64,000 nt of DNA from an uncultured Succinivibrionaceae bacterium (GTDB taxonomy: Bacteria; Pseudomonadota; Gammaproteobacteria; Enterobacterales; Succinivibrionaceae), in the NCBI GenBank assembly GCA_944389865.1, contig CALXNX010000005.1, positions 1 through 64,000 on the forward strand, in the 5' to 3' direction. This document shows positions 8,282-19,156 of this stretch, one piece after another. The translations under genes were made by a program, and so were the position numbers. Each line of letters begins with the position of its first letter. Positions within the stretch are counted from its first letter, which is position 1. Below the pieces are notes generated by a model. That model had not been told where the DNA came from. It did no database searches and saw nothing but the letters and a program-made list of their open reading frames with translations.

Positions 8282-9481
8282 TCAGGCGGCTGAGAGATGC
8301 GCCGCCGGGGCGCAGGAAGCGGCCTTTAAGGCCGGATAAAGGGTGCACAGGGCCGATAAGGTCAGGCAGCTTAAGGCAATCAGGGCAATGTGCCCCGGGT
8401 TGAGCTCCACGGGAAGCTCTCCTGTCGTGATGGAAATGCCCATCAGGCTTAAAATTTCCTGGGCGTGCAGGGACAGCGGAATGCCTGCAGCCACGCCCAG
8501 GGCAATGCCGGCTGCGGCGCAGATCAGGCCCTGCAGCAGGAAAATCTGCAGGATGAAGCCGCGCGAGCACCCTAAAGTTTTCAGCACGGCAATCTCGCGG
8601 GTGCGGGCGCTCACCAGCATGGTTAAAGCTGATAGGATGTTGAAGGCGGCTGTGACGATGATAAGGCACAGCATTACCGACATTGAGAGCTTTTCCAGGG
8701 CCACCGCTTTAAAGAAATCGCCCTGCTGTGCGCGCCAGTCCGTGAAGGTAAGGCCCGCGGCCGTCAGCTCCTGCGCCACGGATTCAATGGCAAAAGGATC
8801 GCTCAAAAAGAGGCGTACGGCCTGCTCTTTAGTGCGCAGCAGGCGGCGCACGTCCTCTAAGGCTGCAATTAAGGTTACAGCTGATCCCGGCGGCAGCGGC
8901 AGGGCGGCAGAGCCGGCGACGGTAAAGATGCGCTGCGTCGGGGTAAGTCCCAAGGGGGTATAGCGGGCATTGGAGGCGGCGATCAGGCGCAGATTGGAGC
9001 CCAGGCTCAAGCCGTGCTCGAGTAAAAAGAGCTGCGGGGCAATGAGCGCGTAAGAGCCAGCCTTGGGCGGCTGGGGCAGGCCTAAAGACTGGGGCGCAGG
9101 CGCTGCGTCAGCGGATTTTCCCTGCAGGGCAGAGAGATCATAGCCCGTGAAATCGGCCAGCTGCATCCCATCCGGCGTCTGCAGCAGTACCTGACCTGAA
9201 AGGTAAGGCATCAGTGCGGTGACTTCAGGCAGCGAGAGCAGAAAGTGGATGGTATGTTCGTCTTTTACCTGCACCACTGCCTGCGCTGCAGTGGATAGCA
9301 CTGCATCTTTAAGGCGCGTCTGCAGTCCGCTCATCACTGCAGAAACGGTGATAAGGGCGCATACTCCGACCGCCATGCCCAGGGAAGCCATCAAGGCCAC
9401 CAAAAAGGCGAATTTATGGGTCCTGCCGGACAGGGCATAGCGCAGCGCGATGGCAAGCTGCAGCGGAGCGAATAAGCGCAT
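8282..9481 (-). CDS. lolC: Lipoprotein-releasing ABC permease LolC-type
   Basis: A 399-aa FtsX-like permease, the second membrane subunit of LolCDE. It begins LALRYALSGRTH-like, with LGMAVGVCALITVSAVMSG in TM1, then a periplasmic domain, and C-terminal TMs with 'AFNILSALTMLVSARTREIAVLKTLG', the canonical coupling region. Its start overlaps the pdxH stop as TAATG (1-nt overlap), so pdxH-lolC-lolD-lolE reads as one operon. LolC versus LolE is assigned by gene order; the two are paralogues. Confidence 0.88.
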   Translation of the reverse strand: MRLFAPLQLAIALRYALSGRTHKFAFLVALMASLGMAVGVCALITVSAVMSGLQTRLKDAVLSTAAQAVVQVKDEHTIHFLLSLPEVTALMPYLSGQVLLQTPDGMQLADFTGYDLSALQGKSADAAPAPQSLGLPQPPKAGSYALIAPQLFLLEHGLSLGSNLRLIAASNARYTPLGLTPTQRIFTVAGSAALPLPPGSAVTLIAALEDVRRLLRTKEQAVRLFLSDPFAIESVAQELTAAGLTFTDWRAQQGDFFKAVALEKLSMSVMLCLIIVTAAFNILSALTMLVSARTREIAVLKTLGCSRGFILQIFLLQGLICAAAGIALGVAAGIPLSLHAQEILSLMGISITTGELPVELNPGHIALIALSCLTLSALCTLYPALKAASCAPAAHLSAA

Positions 9482-10361: not shown

Positions 10362-11573
10362 ATGGGTTTCAATAAATTAGCACTGGTAATCAACTGCGGC
10401 AGCACCTCCGTAAAATTCGCCATCATGGATCCGGCTGACGGCCACGTCTTTTTAAGCGGCATCGCCGAGGCTTTAGGTCTGCCGGAGGCTGAAATTTCCT
10501 GGCGCTTTGGCGATGAGCCTAAGCAGAAGGCTTCCATCGCCGGCAACAATCACGGCCAGGCTCTGGAGTACCTCGTCAAAAACATTCTGGCCCCGCACCC
10601 TGATCTGTTAGGCGCCATTGCCGCCTGCGGTCACCGCATTGTGCACGGCGGCGAGTTCTACAGTGCGCCTACCCTGGTGGATGACACCGTGGTGGAGAAC
10701 ATCCGCAAGGTCATTCCGTTCGCTCCGCTGCACAACCCGGCGCACATCCTCGGTATTGAGGCTGCCCGCAAGTCTTTCCCCAACATTCCGCATGTGGTGG
10801 TGTTTGACACCGCATTCCATCAGACCATGCCGCCGGTGGCCTATCGCTTTGCCATCCCTGAAGAGTACTACAAGGATTTAGGCATTCGCCGCTACGGTGC
10901 GCACGGTACCTCCCATCAGTATTTAGCCACTCAGGCCGCTGAATACTTAGGTAAAAAGCTCGATGACACCAACGTCATTACCTGCCATTTAGGCGGCGGC
11001 GCTTCGGTCTGCGCGGTCAAGGGCGGCAAGTGCATGGATACCTCCATGGGTCTTACCCCGCTGGACGGTCTGGTGATGGCTACCCGCACCGGCTCCATCG
11101 ATCCGTCGGTGGTGTTCTTCCTGTGCGAGCGCAAGGGCTTAACTGCAGCCCAGGTCGAGGAGATCTTCAATAAGAAGTCCGGCTTATTAGCCTTGTCCGG
11201 CGTGTCTTCCGACATGCGCCCGATCTGTGAAGGCTACGAGAACGGCGACGAGAAGTGCACTCTGGCCCTGGATGCTTTCTGCTACCGCCTTGCCAAATTT
11301 ATCATGAGCTACTATGTCCCGCTGGGGCATGTGGACGCCATTGTATTTGCCGGCGGCATCGGTGAAAACTGCTGGGAAGCCCGCAAGATCACCTGTGAGA
11401 TGCTCAAGGAATGCCTGGGCGTTGAGCTCGATGAGGAGCTCAATAAGAAGGCCTTAGCCCGCTTAGGCTTCACCGGCGGCTTGATCTCTACCCCCAACTC
11501 CAAGGTGAAGGTCTATATGATCCCGACCAATGAAGAGCTGATGATCGCCCGTTCGGCATTCCAGTTCCTCTAA
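10362..11573 (+). CDS. ackA: Acetate kinase
   Basis: A 403-aa cytoplasmic ASKHA-fold kinase converting acetyl phosphate + ADP to acetate + ATP, the energy-yielding step of acetate fermentation. Family motifs are all present: LVINCGSTSVKF at the N-terminus, HRIVHGG, VFDTAFHQTMPP (catalytic Asp region), GAHGTSHQY, and 'FAGGIGENC'. An AAGG ribosome site precedes the ATG. The usual partner pta is not next to it: the CRISPR locus follows instead. Codon use is strongly GC-ending with few rare codons, as expected for a highly expressed gene. Confidence 0.96.
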   Translation: MGFNKLALVINCGSTSVKFAIMDPADGHVFLSGIAEALGLPEAEISWRFGDEPKQKASIAGNNHGQALEYLVKNILAPHPDLLGAIAACGHRIVHGGEFYSAPTLVDDTVVENIRKVIPFAPLHNPAHILGIEAARKSFPNIPHVVVFDTAFHQTMPPVAYRFAIPEEYYKDLGIRRYGAHGTSHQYLATQAAEYLGKKLDDTNVITCHLGGGASVCAVKGGKCMDTSMGLTPLDGLVMATRTGSIDPSVVFFLCERKGLTAAQVEEIFNKKSGLLALSGVSSDMRPICEGYENGDEKCTLALDAFCYRLAKFIMSYYVPLGHVDAIVFAGGIGENCWEARKITCEMLKECLGVELDEELNKKALARLGFTGGLISTPNSKVKVYMIPTNEELMIARSAFQFL

Positions 11574-11590
11574 TTGGGATTTTGCCCAGC

Positions 11591-11613
11591 CCCTTAGGCG
11601 TACAGCCTAAGGG
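11591..11613 (+). terminator. Hairpin after ackA
   Basis: CCCTTAGGC (11591-11599) pairs perfectly with GCCTAAGGG (11605-11613) around a 5-nt loop, 18 bp after the ackA stop. No U-run follows directly; the next stem has one. Confidence 0.6.
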
Positions 11614-11621
11614 AGCTCAAA

Positions 11622-11669
11622 GCCCCACTTGACGCAGAAGGTGATCTCTGCAGAGAGCGGGGTTATTTT
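11622..11669 (+). terminator. Rho-independent terminator between ackA and the CRISPR array
   Basis: An outer GCCCC/GGGG stem encloses an inner CTCTGCAGAG palindrome and is followed by TTATTTTTTG (11663 onward). This looks like the true intrinsic terminator of ackA. Its outer CCCC/GGGG part could also stop the array transcript arriving from the right. Confidence 0.6.
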
Positions 11670-11709
11670 TTGTCTTTGTTGTAGCAGGTTGATGTAAATA
11701 CCTCGTTTA

Positions 11710-12853
11710 CCTCAAACACCACCTGTTTGCTGAGCTGGTTTCCGTCCCGCCACCTCAAACATCACCTGTTTGCTGAGTCATACATGGCGGTGCCGCCTCA
11801 AACATCACCTGTTTGCTGAGATATATGCGCCGGGAAATCCTCAAACATCACCTGTTTGCTGAGCGCACTGCAGATGTACTACCTCAAACATCACCTGTTT
11901 GCTGAGCCACCTCTGAGCCGAAAGTCCTCAAACATCACCTGTTTGCTGAGGACTGCCGGTGCCTACGTCCTCAAACATCACCTGTTTGCTGAGTGAGGGC
12001 GATGTTGTTAACCTCAAACATCACCTGTTTGCTGAGATAGCGCGGCGCACACACCTCAAACATCACCTGTTTGCTGAGCCGGGGACTTTTGCCTTCCCTC
12101 AAACATCACCTGTTTGCTGAGTTACGCAGCCATTAGCGTCCTCAAACATCACCTGTTTGCTGAGTCCAATCACTTGGTGGTTCCTCAAACATCACCTGTT
12201 TGCTGAGTGATGCCCCATACAGGCCCTCAAACATCACCTGTTTGCTGAGCATCAGTTTTGACGAGCCTCAAACATCACCTGTTTGCTGAGATTTTGTGCA
12301 TCATTAGGCCTCAAACATCACCTGTTTGCTGAGGGATGCAGCTGGCCGATTCCTCAAACATCACCTGTTTGCTGAGCAAGACCCTCTTTGGATACCTCAA
12401 ACATCACCTATTTGCTGAGAGAATGTCGACTGACTACCCTCAAACATCACCTATTTGCTGAGTAAAGGCAATAGGTAACGAACCTCAAACATCACCTATT
12501 TGCTGAGGAAACAAACCGGCTGATACCTCAAACATCACCTATTTGCTGAGAATCTTACATGGCCCCATCCTCAAACATCACCTATTTGCTGAGTCGGAGC
12601 CTGCCGGAAAACCTCAAACATCACCTATTTGCTGAGGCCGTCTTGATTGTGCTCACCTCAAACATCACCTATTTGCTGAGCACGACATTGACGGAGTTTC
12701 CTCAAACATCACCTATTTGCTGAGTCCTGAGCGCTCACCCAGCCTCAAACATCACCTATTTGCTGAGTCATTGAGGGCGCTTTAACCTCAAACATCACCT
12801 ATTTGCTGAGCCACTTTGGGTTTTTGTACCTCAAACATCACCTATTTGCTGAG
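11710..12853 (-). CRISPR. CRISPR array, 27 repeats of 25 bp, 26 short spacers (type V-C-like)
   Basis: I counted 27 repeats and 26 spacers. On the minus strand the repeat begins CTCAGCAAAC and ends GATGTTTGAGG. Spacer lengths are 18 nt (19 of 26), with single cases or a few of 16, 17, 19 and 20 nt. Repeats 1-16 from the left carry CCTGTTTG on the plus strand; repeats 17-27 carry CCTATTTG. The leftmost repeat (11710-11734) has an extra substitution (ACC for ATC), typical of the leader-distal end. The repeat can fold CAAACA against TGTTTG with an asymmetric bulge. Short repeats with roughly 17-19-bp spacers are characteristic of subtypes V-C and V-D, whose Cas1 works without Cas2. Leftward transcription is inferred from the leader, the promoter and the end mutation. 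Confidence 0.97.
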
Positions 12854-12882
12854 AGTATATGGCAAAAATAAGGTATTTACAA
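12854..12882 (-). promoter_or_regulatory. Predicted array promoter abutting the first repeat
   Basis: On the minus strand, TTGTAA (12882-12877), a 17-bp spacer and TATACT (12859-12854) make a good sigma70-type promoter. The -10 box ends exactly at the leader-side edge of the last plus-strand repeat (12853), so transcription would begin inside the first repeat. It supports leftward reading of the array. Confidence 0.6.
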
Positions 12883-13039
12883 GGTTTAATATCGTTTGAA
12901 TATTTAAAACTAGGTGCTTAATTAATATAAATAATTCATTACTATTGAGTATAAGCATTGAAAAAATTGTATAATTTTCAAAAAGCCTGATACAACCAAT
13001 TAGCTCTATCGAATCATTTACTTCATGCCGGTATACTCT

Positions 13040-13087
13040 CAGCATTGCAGCATTGCAGCATTGCAGCATTGCAGCATTGCAGCATTG
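13040..13087. repeat. Tandem repeat, six exact copies of CAGCATTG
   Basis: The 8-bp unit CAGCATTG is repeated six times without a mismatch. It lies 187 bp from the leader-side repeat and 184 bp before the cas1 start. Perfect 8-mer runs like this are prone to slipped-strand copy-number change. Confidence 0.95.
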
Positions 13088-13271
13088 GCGCCAGTTTTCG
13101 TCCATGACGTGTACAATTTGTTTAAATTGCTCGTTTCAGGCCTAGATAATGATGATATTGTCGCCAGTGAAAACGACGCTTATGCTGCAGCTGTTAGGGG
13201 AACAATACGGTGTTTATGGTAGGCTGAAGTTTGGGCATGACAGCATTCAGATCTGCTAATGAGAGGAGAAT

Positions 13272-14318
13272 ATGCAGGAGGTTACAAACGAGCAGCACAG
13301 CGATTTTATCTGGACTTGGAAATCCAATGCTAAGGGGCGTCGTGTAAGTTTATGGATCCCTTATTTAAAGCAAATCTCCAAACTTAAGGGGCGGGGTAAA
13401 TGGAAAATTGAGTTTAAAGGTGGAGATCTGGAGATAAATTTAGCCAATATTGACTTTATCATGCTCTATGGGTGCTCAGGAAATTTGCCTGTAGAGTTTT
13501 TGGACAGCGTGTGCGCCTATCATATTACTCTTATGATTCATCGGCGTAATATGCAGTACCCCGCGATTATGTATTCATCTCCTCATACAGATGATCAAGA
13601 TGTTTTGACCCAGCAAATTTTATACAGGCAAAATGCCATTAAATGCACTTATATCGCGCGTATCCTTATCCGTGAGAGGTTGGATCGATTTAAGTATGCT
13701 GTTACCTTTGCTGATGTAGGGAAGGAGCGTTTGCAGAAAGCGCGTACGGTTGAAACAGTTAGAGCTATAGAAGCAGAGATAACTGCTAAATTTTGGAAGG
13801 AATGGTTCACGTCGCTTAAGCATCCTGATTGGACAAGGCGCGGCAAGAATCATATATCGGCAGCTTTGGATGCGTGCTCGTTCTTTATGTACGGGATCCT
13901 GTTACGCTGGATTCTTTTTCATAAATTATCTCCGTGCCATGCCTATCTTCATCAGCCGTCATCTTATCCTTCACTGCCCTATGACTTGATGGAACCTTAC
14001 CGCTATATTATTGAGAGTGCGGTTGCTTTTACGGCCGAGCAAGGGATTGAAGAGGATTCTTTTACGGCTTTTGCCTTGGAAAATTTGAAAGATCTTCTAA
14101 ATGAAGTGGTATATGTGCCAGCAACGCGGCAATTCTTGCGGCGTAAAAACCTGCTTCATGGTATTGTGTTAGCGCTGAGATCGTACCTGCTCGGAGAAAG
14201 TAAAAACTTCATACCGCCGGTAGAGGGGAAAAAGAAAGGAGGCCGCCCTCCGCAGGTCGGTTATAAGCTGCCCGGAGAAGTACCGGAACCGATAACCCCG
14301 TTGGGTAAATATATTTAG
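13272..14318 (+). CDS. cas1: Cas1 integrase of a type V (V-C-like) CRISPR system
   Basis: A 348-aa divergent Cas1, the metal-dependent integrase that inserts new spacers at the leader end. The three metal ligands are identifiable: E167 in RAIEAEIT, H227 in HAYLHQP and D238 in SLPYDLMEPYR. The helix DACSFFMYGILLRWI (about 200-214) matches the conserved 'N..L.YGY..L' helix before the His. The N-terminal beta domain begins VSLWIPYLKQISKLKG. No cas2 or cas4 exists nearby, consistent with V-C and V-D systems where Cas1 alone has been described as a mini-integrase for short spacers. The C-terminus is Gly/Pro/Lys-rich (KKKGGRPPQ). AT content is clearly higher than in the flanking genes, suggesting transfer. 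Confidence 0.88.
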   Translation: MQEVTNEQHSDFIWTWKSNAKGRRVSLWIPYLKQISKLKGRGKWKIEFKGGDLEINLANIDFIMLYGCSGNLPVEFLDSVCAYHITLMIHRRNMQYPAIMYSSPHTDDQDVLTQQILYRQNAIKCTYIARILIRERLDRFKYAVTFADVGKERLQKARTVETVRAIEAEITAKFWKEWFTSLKHPDWTRRGKNHISAALDACSFFMYGILLRWILFHKLSPCHAYLHQPSSYPSLPYDLMEPYRYIIESAVAFTAEQGIEEDSFTAFALENLKDLLNEVVYVPATRQFLRRKNLLHGIVLALRSYLLGESKNFIPPVEGKKKGGRPPQVGYKLPGEVPEPITPLGKYI

Positions 14319-14324
14319 ATTTGG

Positions 14325-14430
14325 GTGGGGCTTTTGGTGTCCAGTCGCCCCGGTGGATCCAGCTGCTTGAGGAAAGGATCTAGTGATCCGAGTGGGCAAA
14401 CTGGAATGTTTGCTCTGAATATTAAAATGT
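14325..14430 (+). ncRNA. Candidate scoutRNA (tracr-like RNA) between cas1 and cas12
   Basis: The 163-bp gap between cas1 and cas12 holds three compact stems: GGGGC/GCCCC (14327-14331 with 14347-14351), GGATC-TAGT-GATCC (14376-14389), and GCAAAC-TGGAAT-GTTTGC (14396-14413). The third resembles the CRISPR repeat in minus orientation: both read GCAAAC, a GG-containing middle, then ATGTTTG. As a plus-strand RNA it would carry UGUUUGCU (14407-14414), complementary to AGCAAACA of the crRNA repeat, and still pairs with the newer AGCAAAUA variant through a U.G wobble. Cas12c and Cas12d are known to need a short scoutRNA with a brief anti-repeat. Ends and promoter are guesses. Confidence 0.5.
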
Positions 14431-14481
14431 TGTAAGCTGGATGTCAACAGATTAAAAATTACAATTATAAAAGGGGAAAAT

Positions 14482-17400
14482 ATGCATATTATTGATTTGA
14501 ATGAGTTTGATGCTTACCATCAAAATACAGGAAGGAAGTTTGGGTATAAAGATCTTCAATTAAAAAGCGGAGCTGAGTTAAAACGTTTTCGCCGCAATCT
14601 AGCTGCAGGCAGATTTTTCCCAAACTCAAAAAAGCAATCGACTCAAACCAGAACCTTCAAATTTCCCCTTGAAATTCCGTTTGATCTTCTGCCTGATCTT
14701 AAAAACTTCTATCAACAATTACTGCATGACTATAATGTGATTGCAGGAAATAATGACGGCTCACAATTTGAACTGTGGGCTCGTCTGCTGCTGTCTCAAT
14801 TCAGAATCCATGATAGTGCAGCAGCCGCGGAATCCGCTTACTTTTCTAAAGCAGAGGATGATAATTATGCGAAGCAGCTGACAGAATATTTTGGCAGGGA
14901 TAATGCGGCGTGGCGTCCTTCAGCCATTGTACAAGCATTTTCTGCAGCCCCGCGGGCAAAAGAGCTCAATGTAGACAATTTGAAACTCCAGCTGCAAAGT
15001 AAATTAAAACTGATAGCTGATGGTGAGCATCCTAAAGAGCAATCGTTTCTTAATTACCTGGCTGATACTTTGATTTTACAGAGTCAGCAGGGCAAATGGA
15101 CTGAAATATTTAACAAAAAAGGCAGAGGCAGCTCTCTGCATGATTCCCTGACAGCAATCGATAGATATTTTGCAGATCAAGAGCTGCGGCTTAATTTGCA
15201 GCTGGCATCATTGGCAGATGACAGCAGCGAAGTGCGTTCTGATTCAATAGTTACCTATGATGCATCGCTGCCTATACTGGAATACCATCCTGACAGTGCT
15301 TTCTATTCTTTGATTTCTTTAGCTCTGTCAGAATGCCCAGACCGAGATGAGTTAAGGACTCTATTTGAGCACTTTGAAGTAAACAAGGTCGATAAATTAA
15401 AGCAGAGGCTGCAGTCTTTCCTTGAATTGCGCATGATTACCAGTCAGCAGGTTAATGGATTCAATTGGCTGTTTGGCAAGGGACTTGAAGCTGTTAAACA
15501 ATACAAAGAAGGTAAGATCTCTCCCGAAGAATTAAGACAGCGCTATAAACTGCCTACAGGCGGTCTACAACCGTTATTGAACGTGATTGACGCCATGACG
15601 GCTCTGCCAAATTTGCAGTCAGTTGAATTTAATCTGAACAACTTTAGAAAGCAGCTAGGGGCCTTTATCAGCGGCTGGTGCGCTTTGTTTCTTGATCGAC
15701 TGTTTGAAATATTAGCAGCACTGAAAGAACGGCCTGTGCAGCTGAAACTGCCTTCATTAATTCTGGATCATTCGGCAGATGTCGATAAAATTTTGGCGCT
15801 CAATAATCTATCCCTTTCGGAGTTTGAAAATGCAGCGACGGAATACGAAAACTGCAGAACCGCAGCGGAGTCAGCTTTAAAAATCCTGTTTGGTTTAGTA
15901 CCAGACACCTATGCTGAGAAAAAGGATGTGCTGGCGGTTGCAAACTTCCGCGATAGCTCTCAAGCACTTCAATCTTTGTACCGCTCTTTAAAAAATGCCA
16001 TTAATCAGATTGTCAAGTTCGATGCTGAGCGTTTTGCTGATAACGATCTGGTTAAGGTTTACCCGAAGACTAATGATGAAGTGAATGCTTTGTGGCAGGA
16101 CTGGGATCTCTTTTTTGAAACTAAAATTAAAAAGATCAATACGTATCAATTGACTAAAAATGATTTGTTAACAGAAACATCAGCACAGACTGTTCGCTGC
16201 CGACAGCTGCAGATTGCTCTTGACAAGTGCAGTGAGCTGATTGGCTCAGAGATACGTGGTGCTAAGCTGGACAAGTTAGCACAGACAGAGCAGGAGTTGC
16301 GTAAGATCTTGAGCCGATTTATTAAGTTGGTGCAAAGACAGTATGATCCAGCAGCTGAATTGTTTAAGGAATGGTTCTGCCGCACCAATATTTTGAAAGA
16401 GGAAGACCGCGGCCTTATTCAGGAGGGGCAGGACGGAGGGGCGGCTGAGTTAGATTTTTCCCAAACGGATCATCAACTGATTAAAGGCAGTGACGGTCGC
16501 TTTTGTACGCCAATTAATGCCCATAAATTGATCTATTCTGCTCAAGGGGTGATTTATAAAAATTCATTTTCATCAGATAAACGTCAGCCCTTTGCACTGA
16601 GCTCTTGGGCGGTCTGCCATCGAGGAGATGTTTTGTCTTCCTTAGATGCATTTATTGACAGATTAGATGATCAGCCATTTGCAGGTGCAGCAGCAGTTAC
16701 GGCCTTAAAGCTTAAGCTGTGCTGGCAAATGGTGAAATGCGCTCTTCTGCCGGATGATTTTTCGCTGCAGGAGATTTATGCTGAGGTCGAAAAAATCGGT
16801 TTATCTTTGGTGATGCCCTTGCCGATACTGCAGCGCTTAACTCCTGCCATGGCAGCCAACAAAATTTTAAATTCGTTTTTCAGCGAATTGAGTTCATTAT
16901 TTCAGCAGTCCTTAAATCGACAGGTGTTTACTAATCTGTGTTTTAAGCCTATTTACCATGAGCTCTTTTATGTAGTAAAGCCTGGTAAGAGCGCATGGGC
17001 CATGCCTAAAGCCTTCAGAGACTCTTTGAAGGATAAGGATTTGCAGCAGGCAGTGATGCAGTCTCAGCGCAGTGACGGGTTGATTGATACGAATAAACTT
17101 TTCAGTCTGCTGGCAAAAATAAAAAGCAGCGATACAAAGCCGGAGCTCGCTTTGCTGCTGCAGCAGATGCCGCATGATTGGTGTTTTGATCCTAAATTTG
17201 CGCAGCTGTCCACTGCTTATGCGAAGCAGAAGGATCCCCCGCCTTTGGTGTTGAAAGTAAATGATAAGGGTATTAGTTTTCAGAAGCCGAAGAAAGCTTC
17301 TTTATTCCGCTTGATCGGCAATAGCCGCTATAAGGCTCTGCTGGATAGTCTGTTGTTTGGCAGGACTCATTTATCAGAAATGCAGATCTTAGCTTCTGTT

Positions 17401-18447
17401 TTTGTTGATCAAGAGCAGCAGCAGGTCAGCTCGGTTGAAATTCAGGCCTGTTTGCCTCTTAAAGAAGATCTTGTGAGCAGTGATGAGACTTATAAGCCTT
17501 TTGAAAACATTATCGGCATTGATCAGGGCGAATTTGGTATTGCTTTCACGGTGATGCCTATTGATTACCTGGATCGGCCTGAAAGTGAACGTACCTACCT
17601 CTGCGGATATGTCAGGGTCAATTCGTTCAAAGCTTTAATCTCAGATGTGAAGCATTATCGTAAAAATCAGCGTCCGGTGAAGTTTTCGCAATCGGCCGGA
17701 TCTTCGCGTTTTAATATCAGGAAGAATGTCACAGGCGACGTGTGCGGCGTGATTGCGGCCTTAATGGAGAAATTTAGGGCATTTCCAATCCTGGAGAGAA
17801 ATGTTTCTAACCTTGAATCTGGCGGCAGGGCATTGCAGAATGTGTATAAAGCAGTCAACTCCTTCTACTTGTACGACTCTATTAAAGAGCATCAGACTGC
17901 GCGGCAGAACTTTTGGATGGGAGAGACTAAGTTCGTTTCAACCATGTACAAGGTTGCTGATTCATTAAAAAATAATGGACTTAAAGATCTGATATTCTCC
18001 CCGGGCTTTGGTGTATCGGCATCAGGTACCAGCCGTATCTGCCATATCTGCGGAAAAAATGTTTATGATTTCTTTGAGGCGGCCAAAAAGAAGGGCGCCA
18101 AAGTAGAAGTCAAAGACGGCGTGCTGATCCTGGAAGGTCAGCGCATCGTTCTTTTTACCGCAGACGAGAAAACGAAGAGTAAAACTGCGCGCGCTCAGCT
18201 GCGCCTTAAGCTCAAAGACAGAATTTATGACTTGAAGAAGGACAGCGGTGCGCTGAAACGGCTGATTGCTCGCAATCTGCGCCGAGCGCCGCGATATTTA
18301 AACGTTAAGGATTCGCAGCAGAGTCGTTTTTACTGCGTCTTTGAGGATTGCCCAGCCTGCGGAAAAGAACAGCATGCCGACGTTAACGCTTCCTTTAATA
18401 TTGCAATGCGCTTTTTACAGAGCCTGCGGCGGATCCAAGGGAAATAG
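14482..18447 (+). CDS. cas12c: Type V CRISPR effector, Cas12c-like
   Basis: A 1321-aa RNA-guided effector. The split RuvC domain sits in the C-terminal quarter: motif I IIGIDQGEFGIAF (D1014), motif II FPILERNVSNLE (E1105), motif III CGKEQHADVNASFNIA (D1300). Two zinc-finger halves, CHIC (C1187/C1190) and CPAC (C1290/C1293), flank an unusually long ~100-residue insert. No HNH is present. The first ~1000 residues should hold the recognition lobe and wedge domain but show no motif I can name. Size, a Cas1-only partner, 25-bp repeats and ~18-bp spacers all fit Cas12c (V-C); Cas12d (V-D) or a new subtype is possible. Characterised Cas12c proteins process crRNA and bind DNA without cutting it, silencing targets. 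AT-rich, transferred-looking. AAGGGG precedes the ATG. Confidence 0.85.
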   Translation: MHIIDLNEFDAYHQNTGRKFGYKDLQLKSGAELKRFRRNLAAGRFFPNSKKQSTQTRTFKFPLEIPFDLLPDLKNFYQQLLHDYNVIAGNNDGSQFELWARLLLSQFRIHDSAAAAESAYFSKAEDDNYAKQLTEYFGRDNAAWRPSAIVQAFSAAPRAKELNVDNLKLQLQSKLKLIADGEHPKEQSFLNYLADTLILQSQQGKWTEIFNKKGRGSSLHDSLTAIDRYFADQELRLNLQLASLADDSSEVRSDSIVTYDASLPILEYHPDSAFYSLISLALSECPDRDELRTLFEHFEVNKVDKLKQRLQSFLELRMITSQQVNGFNWLFGKGLEAVKQYKEGKISPEELRQRYKLPTGGLQPLLNVIDAMTALPNLQSVEFNLNNFRKQLGAFISGWCALFLDRLFEILAALKERPVQLKLPSLILDHSADVDKILALNNLSLSEFENAATEYENCRTAAESALKILFGLVPDTYAEKKDVLAVANFRDSSQALQSLYRSLKNAINQIVKFDAERFADNDLVKVYPKTNDEVNALWQDWDLFFETKIKKINTYQLTKNDLLTETSAQTVRCRQLQIALDKCSELIGSEIRGAKLDKLAQTEQELRKILSRFIKLVQRQYDPAAELFKEWFCRTNILKEEDRGLIQEGQDGGAAELDFSQTDHQLIKGSDGRFCTPINAHKLIYSAQGVIYKNSFSSDKRQPFALSSWAVCHRGDVLSSLDAFIDRLDDQPFAGAAAVTALKLKLCWQMVKCALLPDDFSLQEIYAEVEKIGLSLVMPLPILQRLTPAMAANKILNSFFSELSSLFQQSLNRQVFTNLCFKPIYHELFYVVKPGKSAWAMPKAFRDSLKDKDLQQAVMQSQRSDGLIDTNKLFSLLAKIKSSDTKPELALLLQQMPHDWCFDPKFAQLSTAYAKQKDPPPLVLKVNDKGISFQKPKKASLFRLIGNSRYKALLDSLLFGRTHLSEMQILASVFVDQEQQQVSSVEIQACLPLKEDLVSSDETYKPFENIIGIDQGEFGIAFTVMPIDYLDRPESERTYLCGYVRVNSFKALISDVKHYRKNQRPVKFSQSAGSSRFNIRKNVTGDVCGVIAALMEKFRAFPILERNVSNLESGGRALQNVYKAVNSFYLYDSIKEHQTARQNFWMGETKFVSTMYKVADSLKNNGLKDLIFSPGFGVSASGTSRICHICGKNVYDFFEAAKKKGAKVEVKDGVLILEGQRIVLFTADEKTKSKTARAQLRLKLKDRIYDLKKDSGALKRLIARNLRRAPRYLNVKDSQQSRFYCVFEDCPACGKEQHADVNASFNIAMRFLQSLRRIQGK

Positions 18448-18460
18448 GAAAAACCGCAGA

Positions 18461-19156
18461 TCAGATCTCAGCGGCCAGCTGATCAATGGCATGCTGCAGA
18501 TGCTCGTGCATCAGGCCGGCCGCCTTTTTAAAGGCACGCTTTTCGAGCGCTTCTAAGATGCGGCGATGGTAGTTGAGGCCGTTGGCAAAGCCGAAGAGCT
18601 CGTTCATGCGCTGATGACGCTGCAGGGTCTGCTCAAAGGTAAAGCGCAGCGCATTGGTCAGCACTTCGTTGCCGCAGCTGGAGGCGATGCAGAGGTGAAA
18701 CTGCTGATCGTGCTCAATAAAGCCTGCATGATCTCCCACCGAGTCCATCAGGAGCTGATTCAGATCGCCAAGCCGATGGAGCAGTTCCTCCATGGCCGCG
18801 CTGTCTAAGCGCTCGAGCCAGCGCACAGCCTGCGGCTCGATGAGCCGGCGAAACTCCAGCACCGCAGAGATGCTGGCGTAATCGGCGTAGGTCGCTCCAT
18901 TGCCGGTATTCATGCTGCCTAAACGCTCAAAATCGCTGCTGACGAGAAAGGTGCCCTTGCCCTGCTCAGAGCGCATGATCCCTAGGGCAATAAACTGGGA
19001 AATTGCCGAGCGAATTGAAGAGCGCGAGCACTGCAGCTGGGCGCGCAGACTGTTTTCGGAGGGGATTTTTTCTCCCACCTGCCAGCTGCCTTTTAAAATC
19101 TGGTCTTTCATAAAATCAAAGACCTGAGCGGTGATGGAAACTTTGGTGACGGCCAT
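18461..19156 (-). CDS. GntR-family regulator, FadR subfamily (FCD domain)
   Basis: A 231-aa transcription factor. The N-terminal winged helix-turn-helix (about 8-75) contains VGEKIPSENSLRAQLQCSRSSIRSAISQF and the wing SEQGKGTFL, both standard for GntR. The C-terminal all-helical FCD ligand domain (about 95-225) shows FRRLIEPQAVRWL, the 'H..FH' metal-site pattern in EHDQQFHLCIASSCGNEVL, and YHRRILEALEKR. Relatives such as UxuR and LgoR sense hexuronates or hexonates. It lies downstream of the sugar-acid operon (same strand), so it probably controls that operon through the palindromes at 25424-25529. It is convergent with cas12, 13 bp apart. Confidence 0.88.
   Translation of the reverse strand: MAVTKVSITAQVFDFMKDQILKGSWQVGEKIPSENSLRAQLQCSRSSIRSAISQFIALGIMRSEQGKGTFLVSSDFERLGSMNTGNGATYADYASISAVLEFRRLIEPQAVRWLERLDSAAMEELLHRLGDLNQLLMDSVGDHAGFIEHDQQFHLCIASSCGNEVLTNALRFTFEQTLQRHQRMNELFGFANGLNYHRRILEALEKRAFKKAAGLMHEHLQHAIDQLAAEI

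What the first reader, a model, noticed from the sequence alone, without database searches (positions are those of the whole stretch)
12395..12853. Block of 11 leader-side repeats sharing one substitution: a record of spacer acquisition
The 16 leader-distal repeats have CCTGTTTG (plus strand) and the 11 leader-proximal ones have CCTATTTG, with no mixing. New repeats are copied from the leader-adjacent one, so a single mutation there followed by about ten acquisitions explains it. Adaptation by this Cas1-only system therefore continued after the mutation.
Basis: partly seen in the sequence, partly recalled or inferred. Interest (0 to 1): 0.66.

Follow-up and report, generated by a model that had tools for sequence, protein, structure and literature searches.

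The report
Mutated CRISPR repeats dating spacer additions
A bacterial immune-memory array (CRISPR type V-C, which has only one gene for adding memories) carries the same single-letter change in its 11 newest repeats and in none of its 16 oldest, as expected if one copying template mutated and about ten more memories were then added; this is a textbook pattern seen before in other CRISPR types.

Summary
The locus is a type V-C CRISPR-Cas system: Cas12c, one Cas1, 16-20-nt spacers; no Cas2 model hit in a 96%-complete genome. Three points put the A block at the young end: the leader beside it is AT-rich and shares its first bases with two congeners; the only other variant repeat is the one at the far end; and both congeners have G at this position, so A is derived. 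Stretches of shared repeat variants, read this way, were described in E. coli/Salmonella in 2010 (PMC2886076), so the principle is known; the Cas1-only V-C example is a new instance. Strain comparison, the decisive test, could not be run: no second strain was found. Recombination between two arrays is not excluded. Extras: a candidate tracr/scoutRNA with compensatory changes, and one spacer that matches the chromosome 3 kb away exactly.

The parts
11710..12376 (-). Leader-distal (older) block: repeats 1-16, G-type, with spacers 1-15 (spacer 16 at 12377-12394 lies between the blocks)
   Evidence: strand is that inferred for the crRNA
11710..11734 (-). Terminal repeat with a second variant (T to C at 11719), typical of a trailer end
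12395..12853 (-). Leader-proximal (younger) block: repeats 17-27, A-type (G to A at repeat position 16, crRNA position -16), with spacers 17-26
12854..13024 (-). AT-rich leader, aligned with the leaders of two congeners; first bases AGTATA
   Evidence: (GC down to 0.18)
13272..14318 (+). cas1 (348 aa), the only Cas1 found in the genome
   Evidence: Pfam PF01867 62.1 bits; alignment of 5 homologues with E167, H227, D238, E241 invariant
14327..14409 (-). Candidate tracrRNA/scoutRNA: anti-repeat 1 (14409-14405), stem 1 (14404-14399 / 14364-14359), hairpin (14389-14376), dock CCUC (14372-14369) for crRNA GAGG, hairpin (14351-14327)
   Evidence: architecture compared with Cas12c2 in PMC9522604
14482..18447 (+). 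cas12c (1321 aa)
   Evidence: NCBIfam NF033950 404 bits, cut-off 250; PADLOC Cas12c 546 bits; PDB 7vyx, 7v93
9151..9168 (+). Chromosomal sequence identical (18/18) to spacer 15 (12334-12351) in crRNA orientation; no T at PAM position -2

Best explanation
The array belongs to a type V-C CRISPR-Cas system whose only adaptation gene is cas1. New spacers enter between the leader (12854 on) and the repeat that touches it, and that repeat is duplicated. A G-to-A change arose in the leader-adjacent repeat (now repeat 17, or in the copy made at that event) and was copied with each later insertion, so that 11 repeats carry it; the boundary at 12376/12395 marks the time of the mutation, and 10 spacers (17-26) are younger than it, a lower bound because losses are not visible. 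Shown: the two blocks, the leader side, the derived state of A, the V-C gene set and the absence of a Cas2 hit. Inferred: that the block grew by insertion rather than recombination, that Cas1 acts without Cas2 here, and that the substitution is tolerated by integration and by crRNA use.
For: Perfect sorting of 16 G and 11 A repeats. Leader side fixed by AT content and by bases shared with two congeners next to the last repeat, and by the terminal variant repeats at the opposite end here and in L015, plus a degenerate repeat abutting the far end in L009. Both congeneric repeats (CCTCAAACATCACCTGAATGATGAG; CCTCAAACTCCACCAGATTGATGAG) have G at position 16. Cas12c and Cas1 present and open; Cas2 0 of 1 genome, Cas1 1 match. 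Position -16 lies outside the two crRNA-tracrRNA pairings (crRNA -11 to -7 and -4 to -1) found in three species, which makes tolerance plausible. Literature: conserved stretches of repeat variants read as duplication of the adjacent repeat (PMC2886076, passage); changes in repeats copied into new repeats (PMC4869251, passage).
Against: No strain pair could be compared, so leader-side turnover is not shown. None of 3 other V-C arrays read here shows an internal block (11, 12 and 14 repeats, internally uniform), so the pattern is a single case. The substitution weakens the predicted repeat hairpin (crRNA strand -5.0 to -3.2 kcal/mol; other strand -3.3 to -0.8), which one might have expected to disfavour its spread. 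Spacer GC does not differ between blocks (0.53 vs 0.48, p 0.26); lengths differ only weakly (p 0.046, uncorrected). Ectopic acquisition is known in type II-A (PMC7999890, passages).
Confidence: 0.86

Rival explanations
1. Recombination: the leader end (A-type repeats, possibly with leader and cas genes) came from another strain or array and was joined to an older resident G-type array by homologous recombination within a repeat.
For: Repeats are ideal substrates (general knowledge); the cassette lies in different gene neighbourhoods in the window, L009 and L010, and G003 holds a second broken copy (L018), so the locus moves.
Against: Needs a donor with A-type repeats; none was found: 0 matches in viral contigs, none elsewhere in the own genome, and no locus retrieved with Cas1 whose repeats were read has the A-type repeat. 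In the donor the A block would still have to have arisen by the same copying.
Confidence: 0.09
2. Assembly chimera: two strains' arrays, one G-type and one A-type, were merged in one contig.
For: The genome is in 87 contigs and repeats are a known place for misjoins (general knowledge).
Against: Contamination estimate 0.24%; the join would have to fall exactly between two perfect blocks; no second array or fragment was found in the genome.
Confidence: 0.03
3. Repeat homogenisation (gene conversion) spread the A variant along neighbouring repeats without any new acquisition.
For: Repeats are otherwise identical and adjacent.
Against: Conversion has no reason to stop sharply, to start at the leader, or to leave 11 perfect and 16 untouched repeats; no mixed stretch exists.
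Confidence: 0.01
4. Selection for the A-type repeat: the variant improves integration or guide function and spread for that reason, rather than by neutral copying.
For: 11 repeats in succession carry it.
Against: Copying alone explains the run; the change weakens the predicted hairpin and lies outside the guide pairings found.
Confidence: 0.01

Closest known systems
Stretches of conserved repeat variants in Escherichia/Salmonella CRISPR arrays (2010, PMC2886076; passages read)
   Same: Runs of repeats share a variant, read as evidence that the new repeat is a copy of the adjacent one
   Different: E. coli and Salmonella arrays (type I with Cas1-Cas2, recalled); here type V-C with Cas1 alone, and one clean 16/11 boundary with polarity fixed by congeners
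Type V-C CRISPR-Cas with a Cas1-only integrase (Wright et al. 2019; not held; known here from passages of PMC6977970 and recall)
   Same: cas1 + cas12c, no cas2, 25-bp repeat, short spacers
   Different: That work showed integration in vitro, as PMC6977970 describes it; here a natural array records about ten additions in sequence
Cas12c2 crRNA-tracrRNA complex (PMC9522604; passages read)
   Same: Order anti-repeat, stem 1, stem 2, 3-nt linker, 4-nt dock for crRNA G(-4)-G(-1), stem 1, stem 3
   Different: A counterpart of stem 4 was not found here; the RNA itself is a prediction

Membership tests
CRISPR-Cas type V-C | Cas12c effector | tested here: met
   NF033950 404.1 bits over cut-off 250; PADLOC Cas12c; PDB Cas12c1 and Cas12c2 the only hits
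CRISPR-Cas type V-C | cas1 adjacent, cas2 absent | tested here: met
   Cas1 next to cas12c; PF09827 0 matches in the genome, which is 96% complete; the same search rang in 7 of 14 control genomes
CRISPR-Cas type V-C | 25-bp repeats and short (about 17-19 nt) spacers | tested here: met
   25-bp repeats; 26 spacers of 16-20 nt, 19 of them 18 nt
CRISPR-Cas type V-C | tracrRNA/scoutRNA with short complementarity to the repeat | tested here: inconclusive
   Candidate with the Cas12c2 order in 3 congeners and compensatory changes; not convincingly recovered in L011 and not at all in L050 by the same search; expression unknown; the search was designed after seeing the sequence
CRISPR-Cas type V-C | TN PAM and DNA targeting | not testable with these tools
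   No viral protospacer found for 4 of 26 spacers tried; the one exact self-match lacks T at -2
Leader-end repeat-copying record (conserved repeat-variant stretch) | Variant repeats form one contiguous run | tested here: met
Leader-end repeat-copying record (conserved repeat-variant stretch) | Run touches the leader and carries the derived state | tested here: met
Leader-end repeat-copying record (conserved repeat-variant stretch) | Between strains, spacers turn over on the variant side and are shared on the other | not testable with these tools
   No second strain of the species found

The most novel reading that the evidence does not exclude
The array is a natural mutagenesis test of a Cas1-only integrase: a substitution inside the repeat's inverted repeat (G to A, breaking a C-G pair of the predicted hairpin) passed through about ten successive integrations in the wild, so this integrase and Cas12c do not need that base or that hairpin pair; and spacer 15 shows that the same integrase also took in chromosomal DNA from about 3 kb beside its own array.
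Probability: 0.5. Interest if true: 0.42.

Novelty: new member of a known kind. Interest (0 to 1): 0.27.

Why it matters
If right, it gives natural evidence that a CRISPR system with Cas1 and no Cas2 adds spacers repeatedly and at the leader end in the wild, and it names a repeat base that adaptation tolerates. It also gives a ready marker (A-type versus G-type) for ordering spacers by age in other strains of this bacterium. The principle is not new.

Tried and rejected
Rejected: chance scatter (1.5e-7); gene conversion (sharp boundary, no mixed stretch). Led nowhere: the repeat pattern in viral contigs, 0 hits; Cas1 alignment in viral contigs, 70 pattern hits, none a relative; exact protospacers for spacers 18, 23, 22 and 5 in viral contigs, 0 hits each (22 of 26 spacers were not tried there); Rfam on 11500-19000, three matches, all far below gathering scores; more V-C loci from the class (1 further genome of 369, contig ends beside cas1, no array found) and phylum (0 further of 398). 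A first idea that the crRNA pairs with a plus-strand RNA between cas1 and cas12c (8 bp that include position -16) was dropped: the plus-strand duplex energies were no better than shuffles (68 and 114 of 200 for G- and A-type) and the plus strand gave no full architecture. Flanks of ackA in four congeners share nothing detectable beyond the gene itself, so no empty site was found. Near self-matches of spacers at 2 mismatches (4, plus 1 exact) are not clearly above shuffled spacers (mean 0.95, range 0-5 in 20 shuffles). Papers not held: PMC12839519, PMC6386590, PMC8196889.

Full report
Observation. The window holds 27 copies of a 25-bp repeat at 11710-12853 with 26 spacers of 16-20 nt, mostly 18. 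Repeats 1-16 have G at repeat position 16 and repeats 17-27 (12395-12853) have A; there is no mixing. Random placement of 11 A-types among 27 would be fully sorted with probability 1.5e-7. The only other change is at position 10 of repeat 1, at the far end. The repeat pattern occurs 27 times in the genome, all here.

System. The gene at 13272-14318 is Cas1 (PF01867, 62.1 bits) and that at 14482-18447 is Cas12c (NF033950, 404.1 bits, cut-off 250; PADLOC 546 bits; solved relatives Cas12c1 7vyx and Cas12c2 7v93). Cas12d scores far lower (89 bits, below its cut-off). A whole-genome search found no Cas2 (0 of 1; the same model rang in 7 of 14 controls) and one Cas1. The genome is rated 96% complete, so a missed Cas2 is possible but unlikely. 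The residues E167, H227, D238 and E241 of Cas1 are invariant among five homologues, and the Cas12c frame holds the three motifs with the RuvC acidic residues; that these are the catalytic residues is recalled knowledge.

Which end is young. Three lines agree. First, the sequence next to repeat 27 is AT-rich (GC down to 0.18) and begins AGTATA; two congeners (L009, L010) have AGTTTA and AGTATA directly after their last repeat, and an alignment can be drawn for about 170 bp. Second, the odd repeats lie at the other end: the variant repeat 1 here, a terminal variant in L015, a degenerate repeat abutting the first one in L009. Third, the repeat ends in GAGG just before the spacer only on the minus strand, matching the anchor of Cas12c2 (G(-4)-G(-1); PMC9522604, passages), so the array is read away from cas1.

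Which state is old. The repeats of both congeners, 77% and 73% identical in Cas1, have G at position 16. A is therefore most simply derived, and it sits at the leader. The more distant repeats (L011, L015) have C there and do not decide.

How it works. A new spacer enters between the leader and the first repeat and that repeat is doubled (established knowledge). A mutation in that repeat is then handed to all later ones. Eleven A-type repeats enclose ten spacers, so at least ten net additions followed (eleven if the change arose while a repeat was being copied); losses cannot be seen. Recombination with an A-type array is the main rival (0.09): the locus sits beside different genes in the window (an acetate kinase-like gene and a GntR gene), L009 (a sugar kinase-like gene and a flhA-like gene) and L010 (a CheW-like gene) (all these names but GntR are from my reading of the translations), and G003 holds a second, broken cas1 (L018), so the cassette moves; but no A-type donor was seen.

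Effect of the substitution. The repeat can form a 6-bp hairpin; the change lowers its predicted stability (-5.0 to -3.2 kcal/mol on the crRNA strand, -3.3 to -0.8 on the other), and none of these folds stands out from shuffles. In crRNA numbering the base is -16. Between cas1 and cas12c, the minus strand of three congeners shows the order of the Cas12c2 tracrRNA: a 5-nt anti-repeat for crRNA -11 to -7, stem 1, a dock for crRNA -4 to -1, and the second half of stem 1. Stem 1 is CCAGUU/AGCUGG, CCGGCU/AGCCGG and UCUGCUAC/GUAGCAGA, and the anti-repeat changes with the repeat (ACAUU with GAUGU; ACUCU with GGAGU), so the pairs are kept by changes on both sides. Mononucleotide shuffles reach the same score in 11, 6 and 2 of 300; the search was framed after looking at the sequence, and it gave nothing in L050 and no like match in L011 (2 of 5 loci). 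Position -16 is in neither pairing. In Cas12c2, nucleotides -18 to -12 probably pair with the end of the tracrRNA (PMC9522604, passage); I found no counterpart here. Tolerance of the change is therefore plausible but not shown.

Other arrays. Of the V-C loci read, three have usable arrays: L009 with 11 repeats, L011 with 12, L015 with 14 (one terminal variant). None has an internal block. Two more cas1 loci (L010/G003 and L059/G640) end at or before the array, and G034 (L016, L051) was not read further for an array; its Cas1 frame has one stop. This Cas1 is rare: 5 of 56 genomes of the family, including the own one, 2 of 369 of the class sample, the own one among them, and only the own one of 398 of the phylum sample.

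Origin of spacers. Four of 26 spacers were sought in viral contigs, with no exact hit. Spacer 15 (G block) is identical over 18 of 18 bases to 9151-9168 in the window, about 3 kb from its own place in the array and 2.5 kb from the array's near end, within an ABC-permease-like frame (8282-9481; name from my reading); chance for 26 spacers in 64 kb is about 5e-5 by my arithmetic (26 x 2 x 64000 / 4^18). The two bases before it in crRNA orientation are GA, so it lacks a TN PAM. A scan of about 333 kb of the own genome gave no other exact match; four matches with 2 mismatches are not clearly above shuffled spacers.

Novelty. 'Stretches of conserved repeat variants' were taken to show adjacent-repeat duplication in Escherichia and Salmonella in 2010 (PMC2886076, passages). 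[quoted passage not shown] A 2025 study of repeat mutations by subtype is cited in PMC12638026 (passages) but is not held, so I cannot say whether it covers V-C. My searches listed no paper whose title or abstract start reports such a block in type V-C; they cover open-licence papers only. The finding is a sound, ordinary example in a rare subtype.

Noticed in passing
window 12334-12351 and 9151-9168: Spacer 15 matches the host chromosome exactly, about 3 kb away in an ABC-permease-like frame, without a TN PAM: a self-derived spacer that may be tolerated for lack of a PAM.
   Followed up: partly
window 14327-14409 (minus strand): Candidate tracrRNA/scoutRNA between cas1 and cas12c, transcribed against both genes, with compensatory changes in two congeners (L009, L010).
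   Followed up: partly
window 13040-13087: Six tandem copies of CAGCATTG within roughly 210 bp between leader and cas1 that two congeners lack.
   Followed up: no
L018 1-600 (G003): A second, broken copy of leader and cas1 (two TAG stops, 93 residues matched) besides the intact one in the same genome.
   Followed up: no
L050 5740-8754 (G022): The effector frame next to a V-C-like cas1 is only 1004 aa, with a transposase-like frame on the other strand starting 32 bp on; it may be truncated by an insertion.
   Followed up: no
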